DNA of 32,804 bases from a virus. A program made the translations under genes and the position numbers. The stretch covers positions 1 to 32,804 of the IMG/VR virus record IMGVR_UViG_3300042691_008455. The stretch is one strand, 5' to 3'. How positions within the stretch are numbered: position 1 is the first letter of the stretch; every line of letters begins with the position of its first letter. Of this stretch, positions 18,566 to 29,135 are shown one piece after another. The notes under the pieces were generated by a model. It was not told where the DNA came from, did no database searches, and was given only the letters and a program-made list of their open reading frames with translations.

Positions 18566-18591
18566 TATAGCATTATCTCCAATAAAGTCAA
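18564..18591 (-). promoter_or_regulatory. candidate sigma70 promoter heading the sugar cassette
   Basis: TTGACT (18586-18591) and TATAAT (18564-18569) lie on the minus strand, 16 nt apart, directly after a GC-rich hairpin. Predicted initiation near 18557 falls inside the small membrane protein gene, so this promoter would serve the downstream glycosylation genes, not that small gene's own start. One -35 mismatch and the short spacer make it weaker than the others. Confidence 0.45.
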
Positions 18592-18612
18592 GAGGGGGAT
18601 TTCTCCCCCTCT
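18591..18612 (-). terminator. GC-rich hairpin after the DUF1127-like gene (terminator-like)
   Basis: An 8-bp perfect stem (AGAGGGGG with CCCCCTCT) encloses a 6-nt loop, 2 nt after the stop codon at 18615. The following sequence (TGACTTTATT) has only a weak T run. It could be a leaky terminator or an mRNA stabiliser separating the Hsp20 genes from the sugar cassette. Confidence 0.5.
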
Positions 18613-27542: not shown

Positions 27543-27577
27543 CAAAAAGGGATGCTACAGATATATAGCACCCCTTT
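27543..27577 (-). terminator. rho-independent terminator after the winged-helix gene
   Basis: On the minus strand a 12-bp stem (AAAGGGGTGCTA with TAGCATCCCTTT, one G-T) encloses an 8-nt loop and runs into a five-T tract. It lies 20 nt after the gene stop at 27597 and should separate the early transcript from the replication genes, possibly leakily. Confidence 0.75.
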
Positions 27578-27596: not shown

Positions 27597-27809
27597 TTAC
27601 GAGGCAATACGATAGAACATCTTGCGCTGGCCATTGACCAAACGATAGTTGCTGTAGATGGCCTTTCCTTCGAGTACACGAAGGTCATAGATACGCTTGT
27701 AGACGGACTCAACAGGGATGTGAGCCAGATTTGCAAGCTTCTTAGCCGAGATACCAACGCCCTTTGAGTTACGACGGAGGTGCTTTGCAACCTTAGAAAG
27801 CTGAGACAT
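27597..27809 (-). CDS. small winged-helix/HTH protein
   Basis: A 70-residue basic protein. Helices KVAKHLRRNSKG and ISAKKLANLAHIPVESVYKRIYDLRVLEGKAI form a helix-turn-helix, and the following YSNYRLVNGQRKMFYRIA looks like the wing hairpin. It is small enough to be a stand-alone DNA-binding domain. The gene has its own consensus promoter with a 14-bp palindrome over the start site and is followed by a terminator, giving a monocistronic unit. Autoregulation at the palindrome is a natural inference, not shown. GGAG lies 9 nt upstream of the ATG. Confidence 0.78.
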   Translation of the reverse strand: MSQLSKVAKHLRRNSKGVGISAKKLANLAHIPVESVYKRIYDLRVLEGKAIYSNYRLVNGQRKMFYRIAS

Positions 27810-27851
27810 ACTATTTTCTCCATAATATAAGTCACTTTTTATGTGTGAATA

Positions 27852-27890
27852 GCTCCACAGTGGTAAGTGACCGATCTACCACTGTGGAGC
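27852..27890. repeat. 14-bp perfect palindrome (candidate operator or leader hairpin)
   Basis: Arms GCTCCACAGTGGTA (27852-27865) and TACCACTGTGGAGC (27877-27890) are exact inverted repeats separated by 11 nt. The right arm begins directly at the -10 box of the promoter at 27891-27919, covering the expected start near 27884. No T run follows, so it is unlike a terminator. A repressor site or a 5' RNA hairpin are the options. Confidence 0.75.
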
Positions 27891-27919
27891 ATTATAGCAG
27901 AGGTATTACCCTCTGTCAA
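27891..27919 (-). promoter_or_regulatory. consensus sigma70 promoter for the winged-helix gene
   Basis: TTGACA (27914-27919) and TATAAT (27891-27896) with a 17-nt spacer on the minus strand, matching consensus fully. The -10 abuts a 14-bp palindrome. The leader before the ATG at 27809 is about 75 nt. Confidence 0.8.
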
Positions 27920-27924
27920 CCGCC

Positions 27925-29097
27925 TTAGAAGGCGATTTCTTGGTCAGAGGGTGAAGCCGCAACGGGCGTTCCTTCTGTAACAGGATTGATTGTTTCGTCC
28001 AACTTCTTGTAGAGGTCAAGGAACGAGTTCTTTGTGTCAACATCAAAACGGTTCAAGCAAAGCTGAATTGCTTTTTCGCGGTTCTGATTGAAGATGGCAA
28101 AGGCCTCGCAGATATGAACGAGACGGCGGGTCGAGATGATTTCGCTAACAGCGCCTTCATAGAAGGACTTGCGGATCACTTCAGCCCATTGCACAAGCTT
28201 TTCAGTGAAAGCAGGATCAACAATGCCAGAAGTACCGAGAACATTATTCAGGATCTTCTGTTCGACCTTAGCAGCAGGATATTCCTGTTCCATGGTGATG
28301 CTGAAACGTTCAAGGAAGGCTTCGTTCATCACGTTGGTACCGATGAAGCGGCCATCTTCAGAACCCTTACCCTTGGTGTTCGCGGTAGCCACGATGTTGA
28401 AACCAGGAGCAGGTGTGATCACCTTGTTGATCTTCTTGAGATAGATCGGCTTGCCTTCAAGGACGGGTTGCAAGCACATAAGCTTGTTAGAACCAAGGTC
28501 AACTTCGTCAAGGAGCAAGACAGCACCACGTTCCATCGCAACGATCACAGGACCATTTTGCCAGACAGTCTTACCATCTTGCAAACGGAAACCACCGATC
28601 AAATCATCTTCATCCGTTTCGATGGTGATGTTGACACGAACCATCTCACGCTTTTCTTGGGCGCAGACCTGTTCGATCATCATGGTCTTGCCGTTGCCAG
28701 AAAGACCTGTGATATACATGGGATAATATTTACCAGACTTGATAATCTGGCGAACATCATTGAAGTTGCCGAAGGGAACATAACCCTTCGCTTTTTCAGG
28801 AACAAGATCCACAGGAGCAGCCACATTCAGTTGAACAGCAGCCACAGCCATGGCTACAGTAGTTTCAGGATTAGTAACAGGAACAGGATCAGACTTCACA
28901 ACAGTCTTGACGGCATCATACAGATTGTAAATACCACGACCGGCGCGGCGGGTGGGATCATTCACAAGCCAATTTGGATAATCCAACTTAAACTTTTTAC
29001 ACACCGCCTTGACTTCAGGGCGGGTAATCGTCTCAACATTTCCGTACATCTTCTGAACGGCATTGAGGAACTGAGAACGGTCAACGAGCTTAGGCAT
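27925..29097 (-). CDS. MoxR/CobS-like AAA+ ATPase
   Basis: A 390-residue AAA+ protein of the MoxR/CobS type. After an N-terminal helical region comes Walker A GLSGNGKT (131-138), DEDDLIGGFRLQDG (the CobS/MoxR insert), Walker B LLLDEVD (194-200) and FNIVATANTKGKGSEDG with sensor N. NEAFLERFSI carries the arginine finger. CobS loads cobalt in B12 synthesis with VWA partner CobT; cyanophage homologues are named cobS by similarity. The neighbouring upstream gene encodes a VWA protein, the typical partner, so a remodelling pair is likely. I use the ATG at 29097 (AAGGAA, 9-nt spacing). Confidence 0.88.
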   Translation of the reverse strand: MPKLVDRSQFLNAVQKMYGNVETITRPEVKAVCKKFKLDYPNWLVNDPTRRAGRGIYNLYDAVKTVVKSDPVPVTNPETTVAMAVAAVQLNVAAPVDLVPEKAKGYVPFGNFNDVRQIIKSGKYYPMYITGLSGNGKTMMIEQVCAQEKREMVRVNITIETDEDDLIGGFRLQDGKTVWQNGPVIVAMERGAVLLLDEVDLGSNKLMCLQPVLEGKPIYLKKINKVITPAPGFNIVATANTKGKGSEDGRFIGTNVMNEAFLERFSITMEQEYPAAKVEQKILNNVLGTSGIVDPAFTEKLVQWAEVIRKSFYEGAVSEIISTRRLVHICEAFAIFNQNREKAIQLCLNRFDVDTKNSFLDLYKKLDETINPVTEGTPVAASPSDQEIAF

Positions 29098-29135
29098 TTC
29101 GGTCACTTCCTTGCTTGATCATCAACTATGGATGG

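What the first reader, a model, noticed from the sequence alone, without database searches (positions are those of the whole stretch)
27852..27919. Palindrome abutting a perfect promoter of a small winged-helix gene: candidate autoregulated switch
A 14-bp exact inverted repeat starts at the last base of a consensus -10 box and covers the expected start site. The gene it controls encodes a 70-residue winged-helix protein and is closed by a strong terminator. This compact self-contained unit looks like an early repressor controlling itself, and possibly other phage or host promoters. T4 has no equivalent known to me.
Basis: partly seen in the sequence, partly recalled or inferred. Interest (0 to 1): 0.72.

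Follow-up and report, generated by a model that had tools for sequence, protein, structure and literature searches.

The report
Conserved RNA pseudoknot before phage gene
The "palindrome" next to a phage promoter is one stem of a folded RNA (a pseudoknot) in the leader of a small winged-helix gene; its letters change freely between related phages while its folding is kept, so it most likely controls the gene through RNA structure and is not a fixed DNA binding site.

Summary
In detail: a perfect 14-bp inverted repeat (loop 11) directly follows a 12/12 sigma70-type promoter of a 70-aa gene whose predicted structure is a confident winged helix, and the gene ends in a terminator-like hairpin. The operator reading does not hold. 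In relatives both repeat arms change sequence together, and the hairpin loop pairs with a segment about 21 nt before the ATG: an H-type pseudoknot (S1 + S2). It scores above every shuffled control in 67 of 79 distinct upstream regions; of the other 12, five have imperfect versions, four are interrupted by a tRNA-like insert, three show none. Across 26 divergent representatives S1 is 90% and S2 94% Watson-Crick, against 29% and 35% when arms are swapped. The 17-nt promoter spacer also encodes a covarying hairpin (P0), with about 15 G.U to 1 A.C non-Watson-Crick pairs. The leader is absent from seven syntenic loci without the winged-helix gene, stays with that gene across a 1.1-kb insertion, occurs once per genome, and matches no Rfam family. 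Best reading: a new family of cis-acting phage mRNA leader, most likely setting translation. T4 precedents: the gene 32 pseudoknot and gene e/soc hairpins. Function is untested.

The parts
27914..27919 (-). -35 hexamer TTGACA
   Evidence: identical in all 18 aligned promoter-bearing sequences
27891..27896 (-). -10 hexamer TATAAT
27898..27915 (-). P0: hairpin inside the promoter spacer, CAGAGG-GTAATA-CCTCTG
   Evidence: covaries in 23 distinct promoters (mean stem score 6.2 against 3.0 +/- 0.2 with shuffled spacers); absent from the cobS promoter of the same contigs
27877..27890 (-). S1 5' arm of the pseudoknot
27866..27871 (-). S2 5' strand (GTCACT, in the S1 loop)
27852..27865 (-). S1 3' arm of the pseudoknot
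27831..27836 (-). S2 3' strand (AGTGAC), ending 21 nt before the ATG
27818..27821 (-). Shine-Dalgarno GGAG (ATGGAG invariant in aligned relatives)
27597..27809 (-). 70-aa basic winged-helix protein gene
   Evidence: ORF; AlphaFold2 pLDDT 93.6; PDB winged-helix matches
27546..27577 (-). intrinsic terminator-like hairpin closing the unit
27925..29106 (-). upstream cobS-like AAA gene; its read-through transcript would carry P0 and the whole of S1

Best explanation
The palindrome is stem S1 of an H-type RNA pseudoknot that forms the leader of the winged-helix mRNA, preceded in most lineages by a hairpin (P0) encoded within the promoter spacer. Shown by comparison: S1 and S2 covary, S2 ends a nearly fixed short distance (median 21 nt) before the start codon, the element belongs to this gene and occurs once per genome. 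Inferred: it acts in cis on translation of the winged-helix message, because a coaxial S1/S2 stack ending about 10 nt upstream of the Shine-Dalgarno would sit at the upstream edge of the 30S site. Inferred further: because the promoter overlaps the structure, transcripts from the gene's own promoter start inside S1 (part or none of S1 can form) while read-through transcripts from cobS carry P0 and full S1, so the two mRNAs would fold, and probably be translated, differently. Whether the winged-helix protein itself binds the pseudoknot is open.
For: Pseudoknot above all 474 shuffles in 67 of 79 distinct upstreams. In 26 divergent representatives S1 is 90% and S2 94% Watson-Crick, against 29% and 35% with arms swapped. 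All pair types at nearly every S1 position. Geometry is that of a coaxial pseudoknot: L1 mostly 2-5 nt, L2 0-1 nt, L3 mostly 7-18 nt. G.U intermediates on the coding strand, e.g. L020 T-A, L026 T.G, L025 C-G at one S1 pair. P0 non-Watson-Crick pairs about 15 G.U to 1 A.C after spurious fits are set aside. No pseudoknot in seven cobS-GT loci without the gene; pseudoknot and promoter stay with the gene across a 1.1-kb insertion in L157. Single copy in the window, in 1.8 Mb of related loci (both strands counted) and in two 164-167 kb phage contigs. In a divergent clade the -10 box lies inside the S1 5' arm. S1 hairpin energy falls from about -17 to -26 kcal/mol (full) to 0 to -11.5 from the expected start site.
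Against: No transcript, start site, probing or reporter data exist. The Shine-Dalgarno is not inside the pseudoknot, and predicted Shine-Dalgarno accessibility does not differ consistently between read-through and own-promoter RNA. About five lineages (L030, L036, L037/L047, L069, L073) keep S1 and S2 but have no consensus promoter and no P0 next to them, so an origin-dependent switch cannot be universal. L123, L136 and L154 keep a winged-helix homologue without a convincing pseudoknot.
Confidence: 0.6

Rival explanations
1. RNA stability or processing element: S1/S2 shields the 5' end of the winged-helix mRNA, P0 protects the 3' end of cobS mRNA, and the A/U-rich linker between them (UAUAAU) is where a nuclease separates the two messages.
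For: P0 lies just after the cobS stop codon, S1 at the 5' end of the next message, A/U-rich linker between. No sequence conservation is needed. A few lineages without a consensus promoter still show a P0-like hairpin (L109, L115, L120). A cloverleaf tRNA-like element in L3 of one clade could be a processing site.
Against: The nearly fixed distance between S2 and the ATG (10-90% range 18-28 nt) is more natural for a translational role. P0 is missing in several lineages that keep the pseudoknot.
Confidence: 0.2
2. Autogenous translational control of gene 32 type (a specific form of the best explanation): the basic winged-helix protein binds its own leader pseudoknot by shape and blocks its own translation.
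For: Single-copy element tied to this gene only. Small protein with about 15 basic and 3 acidic residues (sequence). T4 gene 32 is a direct precedent for a leader pseudoknot under autogenous control (PMC3014915).
Against: No RNA-binding evidence for this fold here; no conserved unpaired recognition bases seen.
Confidence: 0.25
3. DNA operator: the winged-helix dimer binds the palindrome at the -10/start region and represses its own promoter.
For: Position over the start site; the protein is a predicted winged helix with DNA-binding structural neighbours.
Against: Operator sequence not conserved while the protein is. Second covarying helix S2. G.U bias in P0. Element kept where the promoter is lost.
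Confidence: 0.07
4. Ligand-sensing riboswitch: the pseudoknot is an aptamer for a metabolite.
For: Compact pseudoknot upstream of a ribosome-binding site; a cobS-like gene next door.
Against: No Rfam match, and I saw no strongly conserved unpaired nucleotides in the leader (sequences). The gene order cobS-GT exists without it.
Confidence: 0.05

Closest known systems
T4/T2/RB69 gene 32 leader pseudoknot (gp32 autogenous translational operator)
   Same: Pseudoknot in the 5' leader of a T4-like phage gene for a nucleic-acid-binding protein, followed by an A/U-rich stretch and the ribosome-binding site (PMC3014915).
   Different: Different gene and protein fold; S1 is long (mostly 11-17 bp); it ends about 21 nt before the ATG rather than lying some 67 nt upstream; hypervariable sequence; overlapped by a promoter and preceded by P0; no gp32-like cooperative binding shown.
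T4 gene e, soc, 49 and I-TevI leader hairpins (early read-through RNA silenced; late promoter in the 5' part of the structure)
   Same: [quoted passage not shown] here).
   Different: Here the Shine-Dalgarno and AUG are not in the helix, the promoter is sigma70-like rather than late TATAAATA, the structure is a pseudoknot, and some lineages lack the promoter.
Ribosomal protein S15 (rpsO) and S4 (alpha operon) autoregulatory pseudoknots
   Same: Leader pseudoknot near the ribosome-binding site controlling translation of its own gene (from memory, a lead and not a test).
   Different: The cellular pseudoknots include the ribosome-binding site; different proteins; binding not shown here.

Membership tests
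H-type RNA pseudoknot leader | two helices S1 and S2 with the loop of S1 pairing downstream, kept by compensatory change | tested here: met
H-type RNA pseudoknot leader | sterically allowed coaxial geometry (short L1, L2 about 0, L3 long enough to span S1) | tested here: met
   loop lengths; no 3D model was built
[quoted passage not shown]
gene 32-type autogenous pseudoknot operator | the gene product binds the pseudoknot and represses translation | not testable with these tools
   needs purified protein and a reporter
T4 gene e-type origin-dependent hairpin | promoter within the 5' strand of the structure | tested here: inconclusive
   Expected start inside S1 in the main clade, -10 inside S1 in the L131-L157 clade; not met in about five promoter-less lineages
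T4 gene e-type origin-dependent hairpin | Shine-Dalgarno or AUG sequestered in the helix | tested here: not met
   GGAG lies 2-17 nt downstream of S2
DNA operator of a winged-helix repressor | conserved half-site sequence across orthologues | tested here: not met
Known Rfam RNA family | match to any of 4227 covariance models | tested here: not met
Winged-helix fold | three helices and a beta wing | tested here: met
   PDB neighbours TFE-alpha, PadR, Stf76, MarR at 10-23% identity, best E 1.1e-3; no Pfam or PHROG family

The most novel reading that the evidence does not exclude
A phage regulatory unit in which one DNA stretch serves twice: the promoter spacer and start region encode, in read-through RNA, a hairpin plus pseudoknot that distinguishes transcripts by origin, and the winged-helix protein binds this pseudoknot by shape to control its own translation. 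That would be a winged-helix protein acting as an autogenous RNA-binding repressor on a sequence-hypervariable target.
Probability: 0.15. Interest if true: 0.82.

Novelty: new variant of a known kind. Interest (0 to 1): 0.62.

Why it matters
A 2010 review called the gene 32 pseudoknot possibly the only viral example of a pseudoknot used for autoregulation of translation (PMC3014915). This is a second, unrelated leader pseudoknot in T4-like phages, recovered in dozens of uncultivated contigs, with almost no sequence conservation but near-perfect structural conservation, and physically merged with a consensus promoter. That makes it a clean system for asking how one DNA segment is selected both as promoter and as RNA. 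It also warns that palindromes next to phage promoters need not be operators.

Tried and rejected
Operator reading: rejected on arm variability, S2 and the G.U bias. Known RNA family: none in Rfam. Riboswitch: no conserved unpaired bases seen. Regulon of several pseudoknots: scans of the window, 1.8 Mb of loci and two near-full-length phage contigs found strong copies only before this gene; a handful of weaker hits elsewhere look like chance. Element of the cobS 3' end: rejected because loci without the winged-helix gene lack it and because it stays with that gene across an insertion. Spacer hairpins as a general promoter feature: mostly rejected; the cobS promoter has none and other promoters only occasionally do. 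Universal origin switch: not universal, some lineages lack the promoter. Direct Shine-Dalgarno sequestration: not supported by folding. Homologues in sequenced phages: tblastn of two divergent members against 50,697 records found none. Homologues in bacterial genomes: none confirmed. A generic hairpin search for P0 without promoter anchoring was too noisy to use alone.

Full report
What is there. On the minus strand a 12/12 sigma70-type promoter (TTGACA 27919-27914, TATAAT 27896-27891) is followed directly by an exact 14-bp inverted repeat with an 11-nt loop (27890-27852), then an A/U-rich stretch, GGAG (27821-27818) and a 70-aa ORF (27809-27597) closed by a terminator-like hairpin.

Relatives. 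Searches of IMG/VR with the protein and with the neighbouring glycosyltransferase-like gene (GT) gave about 155 loci, many of them overlapping pairs from one contig. Gene order is peptidase-like phrog_459, cobS-like AAA, winged helix, GT, dNMP kinase, sliding clamp: a T4-like replication cluster. The small protein is unknown to Pfam and PHROGs, gave no tblastn hit among 50,697 sequenced phages and none confirmed in bacterial genomes. Cultured phages with the GT gene show no such gene in front of it in their annotation.

The palindrome is RNA. In relatives the arms change but stay complementary: GCTCCACAGTGGTA here, GCTCCACGATGGTA in L004 (protein 89% identical), ACTCCATCAAGGTG in L005, ATACCGAGAATGG in L011. 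All Watson-Crick types occur at nearly every one of 12 stem positions. [quoted passage not shown] In 26 representatives that differ at four or more of nine arm bases, S1 is 90.2% and S2 93.8% Watson-Crick, against 29% and 35% when arms are swapped between sequences; no swap of 2000 came near. The S2 helices were chosen as the best fit in each sequence, so that figure is partly by construction; against shuffled downstream sequence the longest S2 run is 6.5 bp on average, null 3.7 +/- 0.15. Of 79 distinct upstreams, 67 exceed all 474 shuffled controls. Of the remaining 12, five (L017, L088, L109, L112, L116) have imperfect pseudoknots in the right place, four (L144, L146, L151, L152) have the pseudoknot interrupted by an insert, and three (L123, L136, L154) have none that convinces me.

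The spacer hairpin. The 17-nt promoter spacer is itself a covarying inverted repeat (P0): mean stem score 6.2 in 23 distinct promoters against 3.0 +/- 0.2 with shuffled spacers. The equally consensus cobS promoter of the same contigs has none. Scored without favouring either mismatch, P0's non-Watson-Crick pairs are 11 G.U to 0 A.C in the main set and about 15 to 1 in the wider set after spurious fits are set aside (raw count 15 to 3). These counts are not independent events, but they point to RNA of the coding strand, i.e. to transcripts that read through from cobS. In the lower half of S1 the same test is even (7 G.U, 7 A.C), in the upper half 4 to 0, so it decides nothing for the lower half.

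Whose element is it? Seven loci with cobS and GT but no winged-helix gene have no such pseudoknot there. In L157 a 1.1-kb insertion separates cobS from pseudoknot, promoter and gene, which stay together. Strong copies occur nowhere else in the window, in 1.8 Mb of loci, or in two contigs of 164 and 167 kb. It is therefore a cis element of this gene.

Overlap with the promoter. In the main clade S1 begins within about three bases of the end of the -10 box, so the expected start lies inside S1 and own-promoter RNA keeps 6-10 of 12-17 pairs. In the L131-L157 clade the TATAAT lies inside the S1 5' arm, so own-promoter RNA can form no S1. About five lineages keep the pseudoknot without a consensus promoter. 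The structure is thus not a by-product of the promoter. Start sites are predicted, not mapped.

Mechanism. Shown by comparison: a conserved pseudoknot leader ending at a median of 21 nt before the ATG (10-90% range 18-28). Inferred: translational control of the winged-helix message, possibly depending on transcript origin, possibly involving the protein itself. Rivals and tests are listed separately. The direct T4 parallels are the gene 32 pseudoknot (autogenous) and the e/soc/49/I-TevI structures (in gene e, late promoters in the 5' strand and silenced read-through RNA), both in PMC3014915. Membership in either is not claimed: gp32-type binding is untested, and e-type sequestration of the Shine-Dalgarno is not met.

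The protein. AlphaFold2 gives a confident winged helix (pLDDT 93.6). PDB neighbours are generic winged-helix regulators and archaeal TFE-alpha at 10-23% identity, which does not identify a specific function.

Noticed in passing
L146, L148, L151, L152 (about 70-75 nt just 3' of the S1 3' arm); L144 in part: A tRNA-like cloverleaf (7-bp acceptor ending in CCA, TTCGA T-loop) with abnormal 4-6 nt anticodon loops sits in loop L3 of the pseudoknot, while S1 and S2 are kept around it.
   Followed up: partly
window 29169-29150 (minus strand), upstream of cobS: GGTGGCT-TGACAA-AGCCACC: the -35 box of the cobS promoter sits in the loop of a 7-bp inverted repeat at the end of the peptidase-like gene; conservation not tested.
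   Followed up: no
L186 6092 (minus), L173 6313, L181 2762: A few other promoters in near-full-length relatives have palindromic spacers, e.g. TTGACAGGGGCCTCGGCCCCTGTTATAAT.
   Followed up: no
window 27562-27568 and relatives: The terminator hairpin after the winged-helix gene has a recurring CTATATA-type loop directly upstream of the next gene, possibly a promoter element.
   Followed up: no
window 18591-18612: A strong inverted repeat AGAGGGGGA/TCCCCCTCT (terminator-like on both strands) abuts a TTGACT-TATAAT promoter.
   Followed up: no
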